Origin: Catonia carolina
Taxonomy: Eukaryota > Arthropoda > Insecta > Hemiptera > Achilidae
DNA length: 64,000 bases
Reading direction: 5' to 3'
Assembly (NCBI GenBank): GCA_035578175.1
Contig: JAQMRL010000042.1
Span: 608,560 to 672,559, forward strand
The notes beneath the pieces were generated by a model, which made no database searches, was not told the DNA's origin, and saw nothing but the letters and a program-made list of their open reading frames with translations. Position 1 is the first letter of the stretch. Every line of letters begins with the position of its first letter. Positions 12,300 through 58,298 of this stretch are shown here, one piece after another. The position numbers and the translations under genes were made by a program.

Positions 12300-12527
12300 T
12301 GATAAGTTGGCAAGACTGTACTCCATACATAAGAATCAACTACTCCTGCCATACTATCTGCCATGATGGGAGTAGGAAGTTTTAAATTTGACTATTAATA
12401 AATTTCAAAATGCATACTACAAAGTAGCGTAGCTACATGAAAGTGCTATTAACATCGATAATTAATTGTTTACTGTTTTACTGCAGTACTGGTGGTTTCA
12501 AAGAATATAGATTTCAATACTAAATAT
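12300..12527. repeat. single-arm FB1 relative
   Basis: Related to one arm of the palindrome at 5571-5865 (GGGAGTAGGAAGTTTTAAAT ... AGTGCTATTAACAT ... ACTGGTGGTTTC), with a leader AAGTTGGCAAGACTGT shared with 14096. Confidence 0.65.
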
Positions 12528-14028: not shown

Positions 14029-15235
14029 AACTCTAAATATGTAAATAGTGAAAAGTTAATGAACTCATAGATCGGGTAAGACAACAATCTAATTAAGTTG
14101 GCAAGACTGTTCTCCAAACATAAGAATCAACTACTCCTTATCTGCTATGGTAGGAGTACGAAGTTCTAAATTTGACTATTAATAAATTTCAAAATGCGTA
14201 TGAAGTACATACGAGGTGTGATTGGAAAGTTTTAAGAATGGATTTGGTACAGCTTATTTGTTTGGCGGGTGGGTACACGGAGAGTGGGGAGTGAGTCATT
14301 GCCTCGTCCTTGAACGCCCTCTGACAGGAAACTGCATTTCCTTTATTCAGTTCGCTGTGGCAGCTGGTTGAGTGCGGGTCTGTTAGTGCTTGTTGCCGGA
14401 TTCTGTCTGCGTGAAAATGTACGTAAAAACGGAGCAACGAGTTTGTGTGAAATTTTGTTTCAAAACCGGGAAATCAGCTTCTGAGACTTACAAACTATTA
14501 AAAACAGCTTTTGAAGATAATTGTATGAGCCAAAGTGCAGTGTTCTCAAAGGAAGACTCCAAGTTCACCACGACCGTAAAAAGCAAGGCAAAGTCGGTCG
14601 AAGGTGAAGACAATGTTGGTGTTTTTTTTTCGATTCTACCGGTATTGTGCATCATGAATTTATGCCTGGAGGACTGACAATTAACCAGGAATACTACAAA
14701 TGTGTCCTTCAGCGTTTGCGCGAAAAGGTGCGGAAGAAACGGCCTGCATTGTGGAAAGACAGGAGTTGGGTTCTACACCGTGACAATGCTCCAACTCATC
14801 GTGCCTTCTCCATCGTTGAATTTTTGACCAAATTCAACATTCCTGTGCTTCCACAACCGCCATATTCCCCTGATTTGGCTCCTGCGGACTTCTACCTGTT
14901 TCCTAAACTGAAATTTTCACTGAAAGGGAAGCGATTTCATTCGATTGAAGACATCCAGGCAAATACGGAGAGCGTTCTTAACACACTCCAGGAAAAAAAA
15001 ATTCCAGGAATGTTTCCAAAAGTGGAAACACCGTTGGAGTCGGTGTGTTCAGTCGGAAGGGGACTATTTAGAAGGAGGGAGATGCATCACAGTAGCATGT
15101 AAGTACCACCATTATACCATTACAAGCCCATTCTTAAAACTTTCCAATCACACCTAGTAAAAGTGCTATAAACATTGATAATTGTTTACTGTTTTACCAT
15201 AGTACTGGTGGTTTTAAAGAATATAGATTTCAATA
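14029..15235. repeat. FB1-related repeat interrupted by a mariner
   Basis: Sequence similar to 11120-11195 and 12300-12500 resumes after the mariner at 14212-15157 (AGTGCTATAAACATTGATAA ... ACTGGTGGTTTTAAAG). Confidence 0.6.
14212..15157 (+). mobile_element. mariner (DD34D), internally deleted
   Basis: Terminal repeats CGAGGTGTGATTGGAAAGTT and complement, between TA 14210-14211 and 15158-15159. The coding region starts at ATG 14417 (HTH, KFCFKTGKSASETY), has lost the segment with the first catalytic Asp, and resumes with FMPGGLTINQEYY, HRDNAPTHR and SPDLAPADFYLF (34 residues between the second and third Asp). A frameshift in an A run near 14995 garbles the C terminus. A family distinct from the mariners at 1727 and 58299. 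Confidence 0.88.
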
Positions 15236-22355: not shown

Positions 22356-22670
22356 ACAACCACTACACAAGAAACAGAATCGATTTTTATGTAAGTAATC
22401 ACAACACTAAATTGTTTGAACAAAAACCAACTTATGCAGGTAGAAAATACATCAATAAATTGCCACAAAGTTTAAAAAGTTGTGACAATTTAAGTCATTT
22501 TAAAAAAAAAGCTAAAACAATATTCGATTGATGAAACATTTTACAGTGTGCACAAATTCCTTTCTAAATAGTTTTGGTTACAAAGGGATTCATGATAAGC
22601 CTACCGAGTTAAGCAGTAGCGGGGAAACATGATTGGTAAGTGATAAATTTATCATTGTGTTTGACTTTTT

Positions 22671-23582
22671 TATTTTCTCTTGCCTATATAGGAAGGAAAG
22701 TATTGTTTTCATGTTGATTTTTCGAAATCGAGTTTTCACCGGATCTATACGTTTTCAGGCCCCCTGAACCCAAAAAACATGTTTTTAGCGATTGGTCTGT
22801 GTGTGTGAACAGAATATCTCAAGAACGGAACATCGTACGAACTTGAAACTTGAAACTTAAGTTACATACCACTACCGGACCCGACACGAACATTTTCATC
22901 AAAATCGGTCAACCGGAAGTAGTAGTTTATTCGTGTAATTTTTCACTTTTTAGCGATTTTCTCAAAAACTAGTCCTACGATTTTTTTTAAAATCGCCTGG
23001 TTTACTACATTTTTTATGCTCTACAATATAGGGTAGGCGCCATGTTTGCTGAAATTCTGCGTGAGGCTGTTTTTACGCAAAAACTTTTTCTTTTTAAGAT
23101 TGCGGCTTTAATATGCATTTTAGCGCAAAACGTTATATAATAAAAGTTGTAGAGAATGTAAAATTCTACAACTTTTATTTCAAACATTTTTTTGTATAAC
23201 GCTTAGTTTAGCGGTAATTTGCGATTTTCTGTTTTTTTCTCACGAAAACGTGAGAAAAATCGATTTTTTTAACATTTCGGTCTTAGTATGCATTTTACGA
23301 CAAAAGTGTATATAATTAAATTTATAGAAAATTAAAAGATCTACAACTTTTGTTTAGAGCATTTTTCTCTACAGAGCCTAGTTTAGCGTGAAAGCGTGAT
23401 TTTCCGTATTTTTAAGCCAAACTGAGTTCGATTGTCATTTTGCGTCATTCACTCATGATTAAAATAAGGTTATGTTTTTGAGGTTAGTTTTTGTTTATTT
23501 CTAATATTTTATTAATAATGTTAGGTTTATTATTAATCATTTGCATTGGCAAGAGAAAGTTGTGTGAGTGTTTCACACCAGA
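22671..23582 (+). mobile_element. Rep-A flanked by ~110-bp direct repeats
   Basis: Full element except a small loss near the left terminus (CTTGCCTATATAGGAAGG). Left flank 22575-22666 (GATAAGCCTACCGAGTTAAG ... TTTGAC) and right flank 23622-23710 (GACAAGCCTACTGAAGTAAG ... GATTGAC) are related copies of one sequence. Confidence 0.85.
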
Positions 23583-23859
23583 TTTTTATTTTTTATTTTG
23601 AGTGATTTTTGATTCAATGGGGTTTATGACAAGCCTACTGAAGTAAGCAGTAGCAAAAACAATTTTTTGGTGGTAAGTGATGAATTTGTCATTGGTGATT
23701 GACTTTCAGTTTATCAGTTTTATCTTGACATGTCCTATACTCCATTTGGAGTCACCTGGATGCAAAAAAAAAACAAAATAGTCCAGTCTTACTCTCGCTG
23801 ACGATTGTCGACTTATATTGCATCACCAGTACATTAACCCACATTTAGAAATCCAGAAA

Positions 23860-27845: not shown

Positions 27846-28310
27846 AATAAGACAGAAAATGCAATATTCTAATTAATTTTTCTTTCTAATCTTTTTAATT
27901 TTTTAATAAAGCCATAAAATGCCAATAGGGTTCAACTGCATAGCTTATTCTTTAAAAAAATCAACCTTATTGCCAGTGGTAAAGTATGCTTACCACAGAC
28001 CTATCAAGAGTTAATAAATGTCTAAACCAGGCACTTCAAGCTTACATGTTTGTAGCTAAAATAGCCACAAGATATCACTGGAATTTATACTGAATTGTTG
28101 TAAAGAACATAGACAACTTTGAAAAGCTCAATAATTCAGTCTCAAGCCTCAAAGTATTAAACAAATAAAAATTAATTTTGACAAAGAAAACACCAGACAG
28201 GGCCTTAGTTCAACTCTTTTATAGCATTCCTTGTTGACGTATAACAAGCGTTCAAACAATTGCTCATCCACTATTATCAAAGAAAGATAAAAACAATGAA
28301 AATCTAATTG
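27846..28310 (-). other. intron 1 sequence of the host gene, conserved in the paralogue
   Basis: Contains the single-copy sequence at about 28085-28165 that is duplicated around Rep-A in the plus-strand paralogue (46823-46886, 47805-47871), plus a block (GGAATGCTATAAAAGAG, minus strand, near 28225) recurring at 45058 and 46757. Confidence 0.6.
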
Positions 28311-28316
28311 ACTTAC

Positions 28317-28373
28317 ATTTTCTGAATCCACCTCTTCAGTTTTTAAATTTGACTCAAACTGTTCAACTTCCAT
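28317..28373 (-). CDS. host gene (minus strand), start exon
   Basis: ATG at 28373 opens a 19-codon exon (MEVEQFESNLKTEEVDSEN) ending at a consensus donor GTAAGT, phase 0. The same exon, same length and donor, occurs twice on the plus strand (44911-44967 and 46607-46663). I chose this ATG because similarity to the paralogues extends on both sides of it, and because the phase fits exon 2 exactly. The short acidic leader MEVEQFE..KTEE is the kind of N terminus found on some insect zinc-finger proteins, but no finger is in the window, so that is only a suggestion. Confidence 0.72.
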
Positions 28374-28935
28374 GACTACTCAAACAAAATTAATTATTCA
28401 GATTTTGACAAAATCTTCAGTTCATCACTTCTGAAAAAATATTACAAACAATATTCGGTACCCAATATTCTAAAATCAACTAAAACTGAATAAACTTGTT
28501 GAACACAATTTAATTACAACAGAAAACCCACTTTGGAAGTCACACAGAAATCTTTACTAACACATAGGTATGCTTTTTCTGAAGTTGAAAATGTTAAAAT
28601 GCTTATTAGTACAGATAGATTTTGGTAATTTGTTGAAAATAATTCGAACTTATGCAGACACTAAAATATAAGTATCATTTTTCAAATTATCAAACTGAAT
28701 TACATCCTTTTTCAAGAAATAATCTTTCCTTCCCACATTATAGCAACTTTAACAAATTACAAAATTAATGAGATATCGGTCACGTGATACAAATCGCACA
28801 CACCGGGTTCACAGAATAACACCGTAACACCAAATAAAACAACCTATGTACACGAGAAACAAGATTAATAACAACGCCTGAAGTGAAATTCACCACTAAA
28901 GTAAATCAACTAACTTCGAATTCATGGCCAAAAAA
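28374..28935 (-). promoter_or_regulatory. putative promoter/5' UTR of the host gene
   Basis: Conserved with two plus-strand blocks (43501-43633 joined to 44766-44910, and about 46010-46606); shared phrases on the coding strand include GTTATTAATCTTGTTTCTCG and TCTCATTAATTTTGTAAT. Conservation above neighbouring intron is suggestive; no TATA box or start site can be placed with confidence. Confidence 0.45.
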
Positions 28936-29859
28936 AGTATACCAAAAGTATCTAACAACCAACTAAATGATTAATTAATAATAACGTAATACATTCAGTA
29001 TTTTAATTTACTACTAACACTATACAGTACAAAACTGAATCGACTTTTATCACAAAGGAAAAATTAATTTTCAGGTTAACAACACAAATACATCAACAAA
29101 CCAACCAACCGATAATACTCAACTTGCTACAAGCACACTGCCTCTACAATTACATCGCGTTTTATGTTTATAAAGTTACCAATTCTCCCACTGGTGCGTC
29201 TAGCGTGACAATCTGACTAGCAATATTCCTGTGTCATGTCAACTCCACTCCCATTTCACAGTTAGTTACTACAAATAATTACACTACAAGTAATTTCAAT
29301 AGAAGCTTGCACTGTACACATTGCCTCTACTTGTGTCCCCCTTCTTATTCCGGTAGTTAACATAGGAACTGGTTGTTAGAAACTTATGCCTTTAAACTGT
29401 TACCAGTGTTTAATACTTTTTTATGAATTTATTTCTTGTAAAATTATTGTGGTTTATTGTATAATCTTATTTTAGTTTACATATACTACGTACCAATAAG
29501 TACATGCATAAATTACCACGTTCATCGTTGACCGGTACTGCAGTACGCTTTAATCTCTTGTGCACTGAACGAAAACCCAAACTGAACTAGTGAATTTTCT
29601 TGTACTATAATATAAACAGCCTTAAATTTTATGTTGACAATTACAAAAGCAACCATTGCAGAGTATAATACAATCTAATTAATCAACTAAAAGCAATTAG
29701 ACTATTCTGGTTTAAAGTATTTATTTTGACATCAAAATAATATATCAGAAAAGTAAAAATAGGTAGTGATTTTATATTATGCATATTACTCATTGATTGT
29801 GTGTCTTAATCAAGAGTACAGGTTTATTAGTACGTTTTCAGCACACTTTACAAACTAAC
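28936..29859. other. intergenic DNA upstream of the minus-strand gene
   Basis: Over 900 bp free of recognised repeats, unusual in this window. No open frame with similarity and no splice-bounded exon found; may hold further upstream regulatory sequence. Confidence 0.35.
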
Positions 29860-37206: not shown

Positions 37207-37745
37207 CGTAGCAATGCAAACGAAAGTACACAATACTGATAAGAGAGCGGTAGACAAAACACAACCTTTCACCGTGGCTTCTCAAACGCAACTCCAAAAA
37301 TTTATATAATAAAAGTTGTAGAGAATTTAAAAACCTACAACTTTTATTTCAAACATTTTTTGTATAACGCTTAGTTTAGCTGTAATTAACGATTTTCTGT
37401 TTTTTCTCACGAAAACGTGTGAAAAGTCGATTTTTAAAAAAATTCCGGCCTTAGTATGCATTTTACGACAAATGTGTCTATAATTAATTTTATAGGAAAT
37501 AAAAAGATCTACAACTTTTAATTAAAGCATTTTTCTCTACAGAGCGTAGTTTAGTGTGAAAGAGTGATTTTCAATATTTTTAAGCCGAACTGAGTTCGAT
37601 TTTCATTTTGCGTCTTTCAGTCATGATTAAAATAAGGTTATATTTTTAGAGGTTAGTTTATTGTTTATTTCTAATGTTAGTTTTATATTGTTAATTATTT
37701 GCATTGGCAAGAGAAAGTTGTGAGAGTGTTTCACACCAGATTTTT

Positions 37746-38695
37746 TTCTCGTAAAATGCATACTAAGGCCGATATCTTAAAAAAATAGATTTTTCACAAG
37801 TTTTCGTGGGAAAAAAACAGAAAATTGCTAATTACCGCTAAACTAAGCGTTATACAAAAAAATGGTTGAAATAAAAGTTGTAGGATTTTAAATTCTCTAC
37901 ATTTTTTATTACATAATTTTTTCGCTAAAATGCATATTAAAACCGTAATCTTAAAAAAAACAATTTTTTTTTACGAAAAACAGCCTGACCAAGAATTTCA
38001 GCAAACACGGCACCTACCCTATCTTGTTGAACATAAACTAAACGATTTTAAAAAAAATTGTAGACCAGTTTTTGAGAAAATCGCAAAAAAGTGCAAAATT
38101 ACACGAATAAACTACTACTTCCGGTTGACCGATTTTTATAAAAATGTTTGTGTCGGGTCCGGTCAGTAGGGGTTTCAAGTTCGTACGATGTTCCGTTCTT
38201 GAAATATTCTGTTTACACACACACAGACCAATCGCTAAAAACATGTTTTTTGGGTTCATGGGGTCTGAAAACGTGTAGATCTGGTGAAAACTCGATTTCG
38301 AAAAATCGACGTGAAAACAATACTTTCCTTCCTATATATATATATATTTTTTTTTGCGCCCTGGAGACTCCAGGAGGAGTATAGGAAATGTCGTCAGCTA
38401 TAACACCTGAAATACATATAAGAATCACACAATGTATCACTACTATCAAGAAAGAAATTCTTGTACGCTATAAAAAGTTTCACCGATCAAGTAATTTTTC
38501 AGAATTTTTTTTCTTGTTTTTAAAGGAATTCAAATCCTCACAACACTTTAAAAATTGGGGTAATTTATTCATGAATTTTCTCCCTGCATAAGTAGGTTTT
38601 TGTTGAAAAAATTTTGTGGAGTGATTAGCCACATAATAATCATTCCTGTTTCTTGTGTTATGATAGCCTATATATTCATATAGGCAAGAGAGAGT
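37746..38695 (-). mobile_element. Rep-A, hairpin end missing, split by a LINE L-J tail
   Basis: Begins abruptly at TCGTAAAATGCATACTAAGG next to the hairpin end of the previous copy. Body to ~38344, then a L-J 3' fragment (38346-38664), then the last ~30 bp to GGCAAGAGAGAGT. Confidence 0.85.
38346..38664 (-). mobile_element. LINE L-J 3' fragment
   Basis: On the minus strand encodes HNTRNRNDYYVANHSTKFF ... LPQFLKCCEDLNSFKN, then the 3' UTR CCTATACTCCTCCTGGAGTC and A tail. CTATATAT lies on both sides. A short, recent, 5'-truncated insertion. Confidence 0.85.
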
Positions 38696-43175: not shown

Positions 43176-43500
43176 AGGTAATGAGCCAATTCAAAATCTC
43201 CCTCGTATGCGTTAGTAGCGCATTCTGCAAATGATGCCGAATAATTGCAGAAGACAAACATTTTTTACACTTAAAAATTATGGGAGTTCGCACTATATTC
43301 ATCTAATCTAAGTATTATAACAGCTGTTTTTGATTTCAATTAACCTGTAAATACAGAAAATAAATTTTTCTTTTATAATAGAAGTTTATTTTATTGTACT
43401 GGATAATATTATTGCTAAGTTTAAGTTAAAATAGTGAACGTAATACTTTATGTGCATTGTTAATATTAATAATTTATTTAGTTATAATATTTTCGTAACT
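43176..43500. other. unassigned DNA upstream of the plus-strand gene
   Basis: No feature recognised. Confidence 0.3.
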
Positions 43501-44910
43501 AAAGTTAGTTGATAGTACTTTTGTGGTGAATTTCATTTTATGCTTTGTTATTAACTTTGTTTCTCGCATACATGGGTTGTTTATTTGGTCTTAAAGTGTT
43601 ACTGTAAACCCTGCGTGAGAGTTGCACCTCGCGTAGTGTTGGGACTATCGACTACTTTTAACAACCGACTACTGACTAGTCGACTACTTTCTAATATCGA
43701 ATAGACTAGTCGTAAAAGTAGTCGACTAGTTTTCGTCTTGAGAACCATAGAATTGAATAGACTAGTCGACTACTACTCCCCTTTGCTAACAGTGCATATC
43801 TCCAGTTTGAAGAGGGCGATGGGAGGGTCATAAAACTGCCAAATCTTGGAATAAAACAAATTATTGGTACTTAAAACAGCAACTACAATAAATAATTAAG
43901 AAAATATATTTTCGAAACATATTTATTCACAGCAACAGTGTCTTTAAATTTTCAAAAATGATAACCCTAAGGGCCCTAATGACGATTTAAAAAAATATGT
44001 GTGTGTGTAGGGCTTACATTCGAGTACAGTTGGAGAAGATGAAGAGGTTTGATAAATAATAGACAACCATATTCCAATCACTTCTGCGTAAATAACCCCG
44101 CAATTAAACGGAAAAATGTGACATGAAAGTGTGCCTTTATTTACACCTAATATTGTAAATACAATCGTGAACACACGGGAAAACAGAAAACCTCCCATTT
44201 TTAAGTCGGTTATAAACAGAAAATTTCCGGAAGAAAACTTCCAATAAAAAAAAAACAACCTGTTCAAATTATTTATAAAACGTTATGAAGTAATGTAGTA
44301 ATTATTTTGATGATAAACTATCTTAATTTCTTTATTATTGTTGTTTGTAAACAAAGACGGCACGCCGTAGAGATGGAGTGCGTAGTCGTTTACTCGAGTG
44401 GTTGAATTTTAAAAATATAGTATGGCAGCATCAGTTCGACTAGACTAGTCGTTTACAAAAGTAGTCGGTCGGTTTGTGAAGGGGTGGTCTTCCAGGTAGT
44501 CGACTAGACTAGTCATTTATTCGAAGTGTTTTTTGTATAGTAAGGCAGCACGATCATCAACTAAAGTAGTCGGTTATATAGTGGCAGCACGATTCGACTA
44601 AAGTAGTCGGTTGTATACGTAATCTGTGGCCATAGTATTAAACTCTACGCGCTGTTAAAGTAGTCGTTTCAATACTAGTCGACTAGTCAATACAACCGAC
44701 TAGTCGACTACTCAGGGCACTATTCGAATAAACGACTAGTTTACTAGTCGACTACCCCAACACTAACCTCGCGGATATCTCGTTAATTTTGTAATTGGTT
44801 GAAGTTGACTTAGTGACGGAAGGAAAGATGATGTCTTGAAAAAAGATGTTCAGAAGTGATGAACCGAAGATTTTGTCAAAATCTAAATGATTAATTTTGA
44901 TTGAGTAATG
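43501..44910 (+). promoter_or_regulatory. 5' flank of plus-strand paralogue unit 1, split by a hAT MITE
   Basis: Homologous to 28374-28935 (minus). The blocks 43501-43633 and 44766-44910 become contiguous when the hAT element is removed. Confidence 0.5.
43634..44765. mobile_element. non-autonomous hAT element with reiterated CGACTAGT motifs
   Basis: Terminal repeats TAGTGTTGGG.../...CCCAACACTA and a perfect 8-bp duplication ACCTCGCG (43626-43633, 44766-44773) identify hAT. Both subterminal regions are packed with GACTAGTCGACTA/AAGTAGTCG motifs, presumably transposase binding sites. The middle (43800-44350) has no transposase. Confidence 0.92.
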
Positions 44911-44967
44911 ATGTAACTTGAACAGTTTGAGTCGAAGATTAAAACTGAAGAGGTGCATACAGAAATT
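44911..44967 (+). pseudogene. host gene paralogue, start exon of unit 1, stop at codon 2
   Basis: Aligned to the minus-strand start exon: ATG TAA then LEQFESKIKTEEVHTEI and donor GTAAGT. Codon 2, GAA in the relatives, is TAA, so translation from this ATG is impossible. Length (57 bp) and donor are preserved. Either a dead duplicate or a non-coding first exon. Confidence 0.65.
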
Positions 44968-45069
44968 GTAAGTCAATGAGATATTTATTATTTTCTTTGA
45001 TAATATTTTGCAGTTTGATGAGCAGTTTTTGAATGAATGCTTTGTTTTACGTCAACAAGGAATGCTATG

Positions 45070-45928
45070 AATAACAGAGTCCGTAGTACAGTTCTTGAAT
45101 CAAATGTTATTAACAGTTAATGGGGAAAAAGTGTCAGTACTTGCAGTTTAAAAATAAACATTACGTTAAACAAAGTAGAGAAGTGGATGTATTTATTCAT
45201 AATAATATTTTAGAGCATGTAGAAACAGTGAAGTTCCTAGGTGTATTTCTAGATAGATTTTTGTCTTGGGACTTCTATATCAATCAAGTTTGTAGTAAAA
45301 TATCATCTGGGGTATTTGCATTTAAACAAATTGCCAGATTAAATGATAAAAAATTACTAATGGCATCTTATCATGGCCTCATTCTGTCTCATATCTGTTA
45401 TGGTATCTTAGTATGGGGTAATTCTAGCATGGGTAATATGAATAGGGTTTTTAAAATTCAAAAGAAAGCTATTAGGTGTATGGTGGGAGCTAACCAGCTA
45501 ACCTCATCCACACCACTATTTAAGGAGCTTAAATTGCTTACAGTTCCCTCTCTCTACATTTTTCAGGTGATTATGTATGTTAGCCAAATAATTTTATGCA
45601 GAATTTCAATGTTCACGATCATAACACGAGAAACAGAAATGATTATTATGTGGCTAATCACTGCACAAAATTATTCAAACAAAAACCTACTTTTGCAGGG
45701 AAAAAATTCATTAATAAATTACCCCAATTTTTAAAATGTTGTGAGAATTTGAATTCCTTTAAAGAGAATCTGAAAAATTACTTGATCGGTGAAATTTTTT
45801 ATAGCGTACAAGAATTTCTTTGTTGATAGTAGTGATACATTGTGTGATTCTTATATGTATTTCTGGTGTTTTAACTGACATGTCCTATACTCCTCCTGGA
45901 GTCTCCAGGGCGCAAAAGAAGAAAAAAA
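45070..45928 (+). mobile_element. LINE L-J, 5'-truncated
   Basis: Carries the C-terminal part of ORF2 in slightly broken frame: VKFLGVFLDRFLSWDFY, SHICYGILVWGNSS, IQKKAIRCMVGANQLTSS, then (other frame) HDHNTRNRNDYYVANH ... LPQFLKCCENLNSF to 45826. 3' UTR ends CTCCTGGAGTCTCCAGGGCG and an A-rich tail. It interrupts the intron after exon 1 of unit 1. Confidence 0.88.
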
Positions 45929-46009
45929 TTGAAAGAGGTTGAACAAAGGCCCTGTCTGGTGTTTTATTTGGCAAAATCAATTTTTATTTATTTCTTACTT
46001 TGAGGTTGT

Positions 46010-46374
46010 GATTAATCTTGTTTCTCGCCTATATGGGTTGTTTTATTTCATCTGAGAGTGTTGCTGTGAACCTTTGTGTGAGAATTGTACTACGCGATGT
46101 CTCATTAATTTTGTAATTTTTTAAAGTTTACTGAGCAAGGGTGAGAAAGATAATTTGTTTAAAAAGGTTGTAATTCAGTTCAACAATTTGGAAAGTGACT
46201 TATTTTAATGCGTGTGTTAAGTTGGAGTTACTTTAAACAAAGTACCAAAACCTCGATCAGTTATCCTGGGTTCGAATCCCACTCAGGCATGGCATATTTT
46301 CATACGTTACAAAAAATCATTTCACCCTTCACCGTCTGCATTAGCAGTAATTGCAGAACAGTCGGACGTTAAAC

Positions 46375-46409
<35 letters not shown>

Positions 46410-46606
46410 ATCAGTTATCAAGTAAGCATTTTAACATTTTCAACACCTGAAAAGGCATTTTTTTAAGAACTTTTTCTGTGACATCCAAAATGAGTTTCCT
46501 GTTGTAATTAAATCATGTTCAGCAAGTTTTTAATTTTATTTTTTATTTTCAGGAGGGATGAACTGAAGATTTTGTCATCTGAATGATTAATTTTGTATGA
46601 ATAGTC
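46010..46606 (+). promoter_or_regulatory. 5' flank of plus-strand paralogue unit 2, with a SINE
   Basis: Second plus-strand copy of the conserved 5' region; interrupted only by the SINE at 46266-46409. Confidence 0.45.
46266..46409 (+). mobile_element. 5'-truncated tRNA-derived SINE
   Basis: Begins at a perfect B box CTGGGTTCGAATCCC, ends CGGACGTTAAACC plus ~29 A's; flanked by ATCAGTTATC (46256-46265, 46410-46419). Confidence 0.85.
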
Positions 46607-46663
46607 ATGGAAGTTAAACAGTTTGAAACAAAGATGAAAACTGAAGTGGTGCATCCAGAAATT
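46607..46663 (+). CDS. host gene paralogue (plus strand), start exon of unit 2
   Basis: 19 codons, MEVKQFETKMKTEVVHPEI, phase 0, donor GTAAGT. Same length, donor and 5' context (AGTC|ATGGAAGTT) as 28317-28373. The next recognised exon is 49013-49105. Between them are a Rep-A with duplicated flanks and an S2 element. Confidence 0.65.
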
Positions 46664-46886
46664 GTAAGTTAATGAGATTTTAATTGTTTTTATCTTTGAT
46701 AATGTTTTGCGTAGTTTGATGAGCAATTGTTTGAACGCTTGTTATACGTCAACTAGGAATGCTGTATAAGAGGTTGAACTACAGCCATGTCTGGTGTTTT
46801 CTTTGTCAAAATTAATTTTCATTTTTTTAATACTTCAAGGCCTGAGACTGACTTGACCTCTTTAAAGTTGTCTTGTGTTCCTTTTT

Positions 46887-47804
46887 ACTTTCTCTTGCCT
46901 ATATGAATATATAGGAAGGAAAGTATTGTTTTCATGTCAATTTTTCGAAATCTACTTTTCACCGGATCTATATGTTTTCAGACCCCCTGAACCCAAAAAA
47001 CATGTTTTTAGCGATTGGTCTTTGTGTCTGTGTGTTTGTATACAGAATATCTCAAGAACGGAACATCGTACGAACTTGAAACTTGAAACTTAAGTTACAT
47101 ACCACTACCGGACCCGACACGAACATTTTCATCAAAATCGGTCAACCGGAAGTAGTAGTTTATTCGTGTGATTTTTCACTTTTTTGTGATTTTCTTAAAA
47201 AGTTGTCCTACGTTTTTTTTAAAAATCGCCTCATTTACTAAACTTTTTATTCTCTACAAGTTAAGGTAGGCGCCATGTTTGCTGAAATTCTGGGTGAGGC
47301 TGTTTTCACGTAAAAACATTTTCTTTTTAAAATTACGGCTTTAATTGCATTTTAGCGCAAAAATTTATATAACAAAAGTTGTAGAGAATTTAAAATTCTA
47401 CAACTTTTATTACAAACATTTTTTTGTATATCGCTTAGTTTAGCGGTAATTAAAAATTTTCTGTTTTTTCTCATGAAAACGTGTGAAAAATCGATTTTTT
47501 TAAGATTTCGGCCTTAGTATGCATTTTATCACAAAAGTGTACCTAATCAAATTTATAGAAAATTAAAAGATACACAACTTTTATTTATAGCATTTTTTTC
47601 TACAGAGCTTAAATTAGCGAGAAAGAGTGATTTTTCCGTATTTTGAAGCCAAACAGGTCGATTTTCATTTTGCGTCTTTCACTCATGATTAAAATAAGGT
47701 TATGTTTTTTGAGGTTAGTTTTGTTGTTTATTTCTAATGTTAGGTTATATTGTTTAAATTACTTGCGTTGGCAAGAGAAAGTTGTGTGAGTGTTTCACAC
47801 CAGA
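46887..47804 (+). mobile_element. Rep-A flanked by ~65-bp direct repeats; unoccupied paralogous site known
   Basis: Complete element. Flanks 46823-46886 and 47805-47871 are two copies of one intron sequence (TAATACTT..., AGTTGTCTTGTGTTCCTTTT). In the minus-strand gene this sequence occurs once (28085-28165). Confidence 0.9.
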
Positions 47805-47871
47805 TTTTTTTAATACTTTAAGTACCTGAGACCGTCTTGAGCTCTTTAAAGTTGTCTTGTGTTCCTTTTTA

Positions 47872-48171
47872 TAAAACAATTCAGTATTAATAACAAGTAA
47901 TAACTGGTGGGTATTTTAGATACTAAAATGTGAACATGAAATGCCTTGTTAATATTGAATTGTAAGGTTATGAACGTCATGTATGAGCACCATTTGGTCA
48001 GGTTAGTCGTTTTTTTTTTGTTCAGATTTTATGTAAGCCATTTTATTATTTATTATGTGTTTAACAAAATGAGAAATTCACAAGATGAAAGAACCGTAAA
48101 ACTGATTCATGACATCCAGTTCAAGTCTGATTCTAATCTACCCATTTCTTATGAATCTAAACAGCATACAA
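47872..48171. other. intronic DNA of the plus-strand gene
   Basis: No features recognised; a 121-codon frame from 47946 runs into the S2 element and is not supported. Confidence 0.3.
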
Positions 48172-53377: not shown

Positions 53378-54868
53378 ATACTGATTTTTTACGCAGTAGA
53401 ATTTGATACTGAATTCATTTACTGCTTTGTATATCATTGTTGATTATTAATAAAAGTTTAAGGTTGCACCACCTTAAATATTATTGACCTGTGGACAAAT
53501 TATTGAATATGGATTTAAAAAAATTATAATAAAATATTGGGCACCAGCCTTAGCAGCCTGTAGAGCTTGAAAAAATTAAATAAATTAAACTATGTTTCCC
53601 TCTCCTACCAACCAACCAGGTATTTTTACCAGGCAAAAAAGCAGTAGACCTATCTGCTTATTACTTTCTCTTGCCTATATGAATATATAGGAAGGAAAGT
53701 ATTGTTTTCATGTCGATTTTTAGAAATCGAGTTTTCACCGGATCTATACGTTTTCAGACCCCCTGAACCCAAAAAACATGTTTTTAGCGATTGGTCTGTG
53801 TGTGTGTATACAAAATATCTCAAGAACGGAACGTCGTACGAACTTGAAACTTGAAACTTAAGTTACATACCACTACCGGACCCGACACGAACATTTTCAT
53901 CAAAATCGGTCAACCGGAATTAGTAGTTTATTCGTGTAATTTGTCACTTTTTTGCGATTTTCTCAAAAACTGGTCCTACGATTTTTTTTAAATCGCCTGG
54001 TTTACTACATTTTTTATCCTCTACAAGATATGGTAGGCGCCATGTTTGCTGAAATTCTGCGTGAGGCTGTTTTTACGTAAAAACATTTTATTTTTAAGAT
54101 TGCGGCTTTAATATGCATTTTAGCGCAAAACGTTATATAATAAAAGTTGTAGAGAATGTAAAATTCTACAACTTTTATTTCAAACTTTTTTTTTGTATAA
54201 CGCTTAGTTTAGCGGTAATTAGCGATTTTCTGTTTTTTTCCTCACAAAAACGTGTGAAAAATTGTTTATTTAATGATTTCGGCCTTAGTATTCATTTTAT
54301 GACACAAGTGTATATAATAAAATTTATAGGAAATTAAAAGACCTACAACTTTTATTTAAAGCATTTTTTCTCTACAGAGCCTAGTTTAGCGTGAAAGTGT
54401 GATTTTCCGTTTTTTTTAAGCCAAATTGAGTTCGATTTTCATTTTGCGTCATTCACTCATGATTAAAATAAGGTTATGTTTATTGAGGTTAGTTTTTGTT
54501 TATTTCTAATATTTTATTAATAATGTTAGGTTTATTATTAATTATTTGCATTGGCAAGAGAAAGTTGTGTGAGTGTTTCACACCAGATTTTTTTAAGTAG
54601 TAGAATTTGATACTGAATTCATTTACTGCTTTGTATATCATTGTTGATTATTAATAAAAGTTTAAGGTTGCACCACCTTAAATATTATTGATCTGTGGAC
54701 AAATTCTTGAATATGGATTTTAAAAAATTATAATAAAATATTGGGCACAAGCCTTAGCAGCCTGTAGAGCTTGAAAAAATTAAATAAATTAAACTATGTT
54801 TCCCTCTCCTACCAACCAACCAGGTATTTTTACCAGGCAAAAAAGCAGTAGACCTATCTGCTTTTTTA
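53378..54868. repeat. ~270-bp direct repeat flanking a Rep-A
   Basis: 53378-53661 and 54588-54868 are ~97% alike (GTAGAATTTGATACTGAATT ... GCAGTAGACCTATCTGCTT) and sit exactly at the two ends of the Rep-A at 53663-54587. Confidence 0.9.
53663..54587 (+). mobile_element. Rep-A between long direct repeats
   Basis: Both termini, short (GT)n. Junctions coincide with the ends of the 270-bp duplication. Confidence 0.92.
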
Positions 54869-57381: not shown

Positions 57382-58298
57382 ATAAAAATCTGGTGTGAAA
57401 CACTCACACAACTTTCTCTTGCCAATGCAAATAATTAATAATAAACCTAACATTATTAATAAAATATTAGAAATAAACAAAAACTAACCTCAAAAACATA
57501 ACCTTATTTCAATCATGAGTGAATGACGCAAAATGACAATCGAACTCAGTTTGGCTTAAAAATACGGAAAATCACGCTTTCACGCTAAACTAGGCTCTGT
57601 AGAGACAAATGCTCTAAACAAAAGTTGTAGATCTTTTAATTTTCTATAAATTTAATTATATACACTTTTGTCGTAAAATGCATACTAAGACCGAAATGTT
57701 AAAAAAATCGATTTTTCTCACGTTTTCGTGAGAAAAAAAACAGAAAATCGCAAATTACCGCTAAACTAAGCGTTATACAAAAAAATGTTTGAAATAAAAG
57801 TTGTAGAATTTTATATTCTCTACAACTTTTATTATATAACGTTTTGCGCTAAAATGCATATTAAAGCCGCAATCTTAAAAAGAAAATGTTTTACGTAAAA
57901 ACAGCCTCAAGCAGAATTTCAGCAAACATGGCGCCTACCCTATATTGTAGAGCATAAAAAATTTACTAAACCAGTTGATTTTAAAAAAAATCGTAGGACT
58001 AGTTTTTGAGAAATCGCAAAAAAGTGAAAAATTATACGAATAAACTACTACTTCCGGTTGACCGATTTTGATGAAAATGTTTGTGTCGGGTCCGGTAGTG
58101 ATATGTAACTTAAGTTTCAAGTTTCAAGTTCGTACGATGTTCCGTTCATGAGATATTCTGTTCACATACACACACACACACACACAGACCAATCGCTAAA
58201 AACAAGTTTTTTGGGTTCAGGGGGTCTGAAAACGTATAGATCCGGTGAAAACTCGATTTCTTTAAAATCGACATGAAAACAATACTTTCCTTCCTATA

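What the first reader, a model, noticed from the sequence alone, without database searches (positions are those of the whole stretch)
46823..47871. Rep-A insertion with a ~65-bp duplication of target, proven by an unoccupied paralogous site
The Rep-A at 46887-47804 is bounded by two copies of one intron sequence (TAATACTT...TTGTTCCTTTTT). The minus-strand paralogue has that intron sequence once, uninterrupted, at 28085-28165 (read on the minus strand: AATACTTTGAGG ... CTTTACAACAATTCAG). So duplication and insertion occurred together, or the duplication after the paralogues split. Known Helitrons/Helentrons leave no target duplication, so a long one is not the textbook outcome. Possible routes: replication through the element end, strand-displacement repair, or unequal exchange.
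Basis: seen in the sequence. Interest (0 to 1): 0.8.

Follow-up and report, generated by a model that had tools for sequence, protein, structure and literature searches.

The report
Helentron-like insertion inside duplicated target
A common jumping element that normally slips into runs of T without leaving a mark is, at this spot and at one other nearby, sandwiched between two copies of the very stretch it landed in, which hints that its two ends can occasionally attach to two different T-runs.

Summary
Rep-A is a non-autonomous Helentron-type element (HINE/DINE-1-like); its true span here is 46882-47804, because five Ts before ACTTTC belong to it. It lies between two copies (60 and 61 bp) of one target stretch. 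The paralogue at 28105-28165 (minus) has that stretch once, and the two copies are closer to each other than to the paralogue, so the duplication is younger than the paralogue split. Scanning all 18 near-complete window copies found a second case: copy 53658-54587 sits between two copies of a 273-bp segment of a dispersed repeat; 20 of 20 other fetched copies of that repeat have the segment once, and two of these 20 carry a Rep-A at the same T-run without duplication. In both cases the 5' end joins the left edge of one T-run and the 3' end the left edge of another upstream. It is rare: 2 of 54 scored copies. Duplication coupled to insertion is my best explanation (0.6). A tandem duplication that came first is the main rival; an exact-pattern search of limited sensitivity found no such intermediate. 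The HINE papers I opened report no target duplication, though one cites earlier reports of target modification.

The parts
46822..46881 (+). left copy (L) of the duplicated target, starts with T7 (site u)
46882..47804 (+). Rep-A element: TTTTT + ACTTTC ... CACACCAGA, no ORF of 90 aa or more
46886..46925 (+). 5' inverted repeat, itself palindromic (strong hairpin)
   Evidence: z = -7.2 for 46882-46930
47770..47782 (+). 3' subterminal inverted repeat GGCAAGAGAAAGT, complement of 46887-46899
   Evidence: pair I8
47784..47800 (+). 3' terminal hairpin (6-bp stem), 4 nt from the end
   Evidence: z = -1.9 for 47770-47804
47805..47865 (+). right copy (R) of the duplicated target, starts with T7
47866..47870 (+). 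T5 run (site d) whose left edge is where the element's 5' end joined
28105..28165 (-). paralogue P: same stretch once, no element
45933..46005 (+). truncated third copy T1 of the upstream part of the stretch
53385..53657 (+). second case: left copy of a 273-bp target segment (inside dispersed repeat C)
53658..54587 (+). second case: Rep-A copy (TTATT + ACTTTC ... CCAGA)
54588..54861 (+). second case: right copy of the target segment (274 bp)
54862..54867 (+). second case: T6 run (site d), followed by the rest of repeat C

Best explanation
Rep-A is a Helentron-associated non-autonomous element that normally inserts cleanly at the left (5') edge of a T-run. In a minority of insertions its two ends join the same strand at the left edges of two different T-runs: the 5' end at the downstream run d, the 3' end at the upstream run u. 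The stretch from u to d then ends up on both sides. Proposed mechanism (inferred, not shown): the transposase nicks the target at u, repair synthesis from that 3' end displaces the old strand, a second nick at a T-run d further on receives the element's 5' end, and the displaced strand starting at u receives its 3' end. Shown: structure, T-run edges at both junctions, clean insertion at two other sites with known empty counterparts, derived and local origin of both duplications. Inferred: that insertion and duplication were one event, and how.
For: Two of 18 window copies have exactly abutting long repeats (scores 100 and 521); no control pair of 1500 per setting reached 87, and 94 overlapping intervals from other dispersed repeats gave at most 27. 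With the 18 copies cut out, these two are the only adjacent duplications of 60 bp or more with no gap in 47 kb; one older one (77%, small gap) and shorter or low-complexity ones exist. All four junctions lie at left edges of T-runs. For the second case, 20 of 20 fetched copies of repeat C (of 38 non-window hits scored) have the segment once; two of them carry a Rep-A at the same run d without duplication. The window's two copies group together (support 95) and share a combination of rare states found in no other of the 20. Segment tandem without Rep-A: 0 places by exact pattern, and no close pair among 40 scored hits except the window's. Rep-A 3' end at u: only the window locus, against 26 places with u uninterrupted, one of them the window's left copy. 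Copy-to-copy differences (11 seen, 17 expected if as old as the elements' terminal branches, P = 0.08) do not make the duplications older than the insertions.
Against: Only two cases; 0 of 37 other genomic copies show it. Leaving out the copy that drew attention, the excess over free T-runs of the window is not significant (1 of 53 versus 1 of 456, P = 0.20; with it 2 of 54, P = 0.03). The exact patterns see only part of repeat C: 8 of 20 fetched copies match the u pattern. By raw distance winR is as near to L053 and L054 (6 of 264) as to winL (6 of 273). The HINE and DINE-1 papers opened report no long target duplication. The divergence test cannot separate one event from two close ones. Since element and target both carry Ts, the exact point within a T-run is ambiguous by a few bases.
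Confidence: 0.6

Rival explanations
1. Tandem duplication first: slippage or unequal exchange between two T-runs made a tandem pair whose junction is a T-run, and Rep-A later inserted cleanly at that junction.
For: T-runs at both ends of the unit would promote such duplications; an older tandem duplication (77%) in a LINE 3' region does exist in the window, with a T5 at its junction, and a Rep-A landed 23 bp from that junction. Nothing in the junctions themselves excludes it.
Against: No unoccupied segment tandem of repeat C: 0 places by exact pattern (limited sensitivity), no second close pair in 40 scored hits. In the window 14 of 470 runs of five or more Ts are occupied, so hitting exactly the junction twice is unlikely a priori.
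Confidence: 0.27
2. Two separate Rep-A insertions, one at u and one at d on different chromosomes of one locus, recombined within Rep-A, leaving the u-d stretch on both sides.
For: Would use only clean insertions and homologous exchange; d is a recurrent target (3 places with the Rep-A 3' end at d). Divergence along the element is uneven, but it is uneven in other copies too.
Against: For repeat C the two copies share a unique combination of rare states, so an origin from two different C loci is unlikely. No other Rep-A 3' end at u by exact pattern. Two insertions polymorphic at one time within 60 or 273 bp, in the same orientation, twice, is improbable.
Confidence: 0.08
3. Retroposition-like or other break-repair insertion, giving a long target duplication unrelated to the Helentron pathway.
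For: Target duplications of variable length are typical of target-primed retroposition (general knowledge), and Helentrons encode a CR1-like endonuclease (PMC4067079, section 16 read).
Against: The oligo-T at the 5' end is exactly the 5-nt TTTTT or TTATT in the window copies and in 34 of 38 other rows rather than a variable tail; both ends are intact and canonical; two ordinary copies show no duplication against known empty sites.
Confidence: 0.03

Closest known systems
HINEs / DINE-1 (Helentron-associated interspersed elements; PMC4067079, PMC2374699)
   Same: About 0.93 kb here, no long ORF, 13-bp subterminal inverted repeats, 3' hairpin, TG microsatellite and internal repeats in several copies, insertion at T-runs, Ts on both sides
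   Different: Those studies found no target modification (or at most TT, depending on where the end is placed), though PMC4067079 mentions earlier reports of target modification (not read); here 2 of 54 scored copies carry 60- and 273-bp target duplications
Cg_HINE elements of the Pacific oyster (PMC7492417, passages seen)
   Same: HINE structure, T-rich insertion sites, empty sites found
   Different: No indication of target duplication reported
Helraiser and other canonical Helitrons (PMC4778049, PMC5876387, PMC13286980, passages seen)
   Same: Rolling-circle type of element, 3' hairpin, no target duplication in the normal product
   Different: AT target, TC...CTRR ends; this element has other ends and T-run targets

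Membership tests
HINE (non-autonomous Helentron) | no coding capacity | tested here: met
   no ORF of 90 aa or more overlaps 46882-47804
HINE (non-autonomous Helentron) | 12-15 bp subterminal inverted repeats, the 5' one near the terminus | tested here: met
   13 bp, 100% complementary; 5 nt from the 5' end, where the mite HINEs have about 2-4 nt (PMC4067079); the 3' one ends 22 nt from the 3' end, in the mite about 38-60
HINE (non-autonomous Helentron) | palindrome near the 3' end | tested here: met
   6-bp stem 4 nt from the end (weak by free energy, z = -1.9); about 8-35 nt in the mite; the stem sequence is almost the same in the 18 copies with a 3' end
HINE (non-autonomous Helentron) | insertion in T-rich sites, Ts at both ends | tested here: met
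HINE (non-autonomous Helentron) | no target-site duplication | tested here: inconclusive
   no long duplication in 52 of 54 scored copies (short ones were not scored) and none at two filled sites with known empty sites; not met in the copies at 46882 and 53658
HINE (non-autonomous Helentron) | sequence relation to an autonomous Helentron encoding Rep/helicase/endonuclease | not tested
   no autonomous partner was searched for in the genome
canonical Helitron | 5' TC ... 3' CTRR ends in an AT target | tested here: not met
   ends are TTTTTACTTTC ... CACACCAGA at T-runs

The most novel reading that the evidence does not exclude
Helentron-type insertion has a minority pathway in which the two element ends are joined at two T-run nicks on one strand, with strand-displacement synthesis between them, giving target duplications of tens to hundreds of base pairs; this would make Helentrons a source of small local duplications.
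Probability: 0.5. Interest if true: 0.65.

Novelty: new variant of a known kind. Interest (0 to 1): 0.5.

Why it matters
Absence of target duplication is one of the marks by which Helitrons and Helentrons are recognised and an argument for a single-strand mechanism (PMC5876387, passages seen). If a few per cent of Helentron insertions do duplicate 60-270 bp, bounded by T-runs at both ends, that is a direct handle on how these elements choose and join target nicks, an open question; it would also be a route by which such elements duplicate host sequence. Repeat C, with some 400 candidate copies in this genome and a recurrent insertion point, makes this testable in one genome.

Tried and rejected
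Third candidate, copy 22672-23583 (flank score 80): rejected. When Rep-A is cut out, the homology runs on through the insertion point; Rep-A lies 23 bp inside an older tandem duplication (77%) in a LINE 3' region.

L039 (score 45): rejected after reading its flanks; an AT-rich match that ends 44 bp from the element on the left side.

Idea that left and right T-runs are a T-run target duplication: rejected, because empty copies of repeat C mostly have T6-T7 at d and the filled copies have T5 (element) plus such a run in total.

Retroposon reading (oligo-T as a tail): rejected, the tract is the same 5 nt in most copies.

Age test between coupled and duplication-first readings: not decisive. Mosaic test for the recombination reading: not decisive.

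Rep-A ends by exact pattern: 0 matches in viral contigs and genome contigs.

Literature: eight answered searches listed no paper that I recognised from title and abstract start as reporting long target duplications at Helentrons or Helitrons. Opened: PMC4067079 (abstract, first part of Results, section 16, passages), and passages only of PMC2374699, PMC7492417, PMC5148889, PMC4778049, PMC13286980 and PMC5876387. The library lacks most subscription journals.

Rows dropped before counts: one search lists 19 copies, of which a broken one (37744-38359) was not scored; the copy 57388-58297 lacks its 5' end and is left out of the 17 (it is in the 18, score at most 26). In one search L069 had too short a flank; of the 39 rows scored one (L002, start 0) had a wrongly cut left flank and one is this copy, leaving 37, with left flanks of 70 to 395 bases; partial copies were not scored. 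L070 did not enter the table; L069 and L070 were read by eye. The 37 are mostly best hits to this copy (40 of 14132 candidates scored), not a random sample; 200 kb of random DNA held one full copy. The 20 copies of repeat C were 20 of the 38 non-window hits, fetched with about 120 bases on each side.

Genome searches did not complete: Rep-A 5' end at d, Rep-A 5' end at u, and paralogues of 46700-46881. So the genome-wide counts for u and d rest on the 3' end only.

Full report
What is there. The window is rich in transposons (a LINE with reverse transcriptase and endonuclease, mariner-like transposases); I take it for insect DNA, but no call named the organism. Rep-A, the element of the finding, has 18 near-complete copies in 64 kb, whereas 200 kb of randomly placed stretches of the same genome held one. 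The copies share their ends, apart from one that lost its 5' end and small changes: a 5' inverted repeat ACTTTCTCTTGCC that opens a strong hairpin, its complement GGCAAGAGAAAGT near the 3' end, a 6-bp-stem hairpin, CACACCAGA, and then, in 17 of 18, a run of three or more Ts. This is the structure described for HINE/DINE-1 elements, the non-autonomous partners of Helentrons (PMC4067079: abstract, first part of Results, section 16 and passages seen; PMC2374699: passages seen).

True ends. In 14 of 17 window copies with an intact 5' end the five bases before ACTTTC are TTTTT and in the other 3 TTATT, while the base before them is T5 C5 G4 A3. In one search, 34 of 38 other rows show the same two forms, with A the commonest base before them (22 of 38). 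Empty copies of repeat C mostly read TCTGC-T6/7-AATTG; filled copies read TCTGC-TTTTT-ACTTTC...CCAGA-T7-AATTG (L069) and TCTGC-T6-ACTTTC...CCAGA-T5-AATTG (L070). So the five Ts belong to the element and insertion is clean, at or one base inside the left edge of a T-run. The element of the finding is therefore 46882-47804.

The duplication at the finding. Left copy 46822-46881 and right copy 47805-47865 differ by 5 substitutions and one indel. Both begin with T7, and the right copy is followed by T5, the run at whose left edge the element's 5' end joined. The paralogue on the minus strand (28105-28165) has the stretch once. Over 59 columns the two copies agree against the paralogue at 8, and the paralogue agrees with one of them against the other at 3 and 2. 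The duplication is thus younger than the paralogue split. A flank comparison gives score 100; 1500 control pairs per setting, clear of the 18 copies, gave at most 40 or 58 according to flank length.

A second case. Scanning all 18 copies turned up copy 53658-54587, bounded by 53385-53657 and 54588-54861, which differ at 6 of 273 sites. The segment is the inside of a dispersed repeat (called C here; 419 first-look candidates, 40 scored). Twenty of the 38 non-window hits were fetched with about 120 bases on each side: all 20 have the segment once, 18 uninterrupted and 2 with a Rep-A at the same downstream T-run; read to the other side, both of these are insertions without duplication. A third place, C70, has a Rep-A 3' end at that run, but its other side was not resolved. 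Among 22 sequences of the segment the window's two copies group together with support 95 and share a combination of rare states: one base with L068, a 3-base insertion and one base with L050, a 6-base insertion in part with L060 and L061, all together in no other copy. By raw distance, however, the right copy is as near to L053 and L054 (6 of 264) as to the left copy (6 of 273). I read the duplication as local.

A shared rule. In both cases the 5' end sits at the left edge of a downstream T-run (GTTCC|T5, CTGC|T6) and the 3' end at the left edge of an upstream one (CA|T7, CTGA|T6). In the first case no other run of four or more Ts lies between; in the second a T4 and a T5 do (counted on the right copy).

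Is it caused by insertion? For: with the 18 copies cut out of the window, these two are the only adjacent units of 60 bp or more with no gap; one older tandem in a LINE 3' region also exists, with a Rep-A 23 bp from its junction, and there are shorter ones (44 and 38 bp) and simple repeats. Around 94 overlapping intervals of other repeats no flank score exceeds 27. No place in the genome matches the exact pattern of a C tandem without Rep-A; no two of the 40 scored C units lie within 5 kb except the window's pair; the 3' end of Rep-A stands at u only in the window, against 26 places where u is uninterrupted, the window's left copy among them. These patterns allow no mismatch, and the u pattern matches only 8 of the 20 fetched copies, so they see perhaps two fifths of the family. 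Against: 0 of 37 other genomic copies show it, so it is 2 of 54 overall (95% interval 0.5-12.7%), and without the copy that drew attention the excess over free T-runs of the window is not significant (P = 0.20; with it 0.03). Inside the window alone the same comparison gave P = 0.002 with and 0.055 without it, and 2 of 7 against 0 of 68 for runs of seven or more Ts (P = 0.008). Divergence between copies (11 substitutions, against 17 expected if they were as old as the elements' terminal branches) shows no duplication older than its insertion, but terminal branches are only upper bounds of insertion age.

Mechanism. The same edge rule at both junctions on the same strand suits a model in which the transposase nicks at u, repair synthesis displaces the strand, and a second nick at d completes the joining. 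A stagger between opposite strands, as in retrotransposon integration, is an alternative for a protein family that carries a CR1-like endonuclease (PMC4067079, section 16). Neither was tested here.

What is known. PMC4067079 reports no target modification at HINEs and variable T numbers, and says that earlier studies sometimes reported target modification (those I did not read); PMC2374699 discusses TT at most; PMC7492417 found none in oyster HINEs; PMC5876387, PMC4778049, PMC13286980 and PMC5148889 describe Helitrons as leaving none (passages only seen in these six). My eight answered literature searches listed no report of long duplications that I recognised from titles and abstract starts.

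Noticed in passing
window 22572-22671 + 23584-23606 versus 23607-23728: Older tandem duplication (about 77%) in a LINE 3' region with a T5 at the junction; a Rep-A inserted inside its first unit.
   Followed up: yes
whole window versus 200 kb of random genome stretches: The window is a Rep-A hot spot: 18 near-complete copies in 64 kb against 1 in 200 kb.
   Followed up: partly
window 38346-38695: A LINE fragment (38349-38664) sits inside a Rep-A copy with what looks like a 16-bp target duplication of Rep-A positions 14-29 (inferred from hits).
   Followed up: no
window 12303-12416 and 14094-14200: Direct repeats 87% alike, 1.7 kb apart, on either side of a stretch with another dispersed repeat and a transposase-like fragment.
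   Followed up: partly
window 43356-46005 and 46006-47950: Two diverged tandem copies of one gene-like segment, both matching the minus strand at 28025-29072; the copy boundary is near 46005/46006, at a point inside the stretch that was later duplicated.
   Followed up: no
window 37295-38346: Two Rep-A pieces in opposite orientation next to each other, a fold-back.
   Followed up: no
genome repeat C, loci L053/L069, L061/L070, L071: One T-run inside repeat C was used by Rep-A at three places besides the window (3' end pattern; two read on both sides): a recurrent insertion point.
   Followed up: partly
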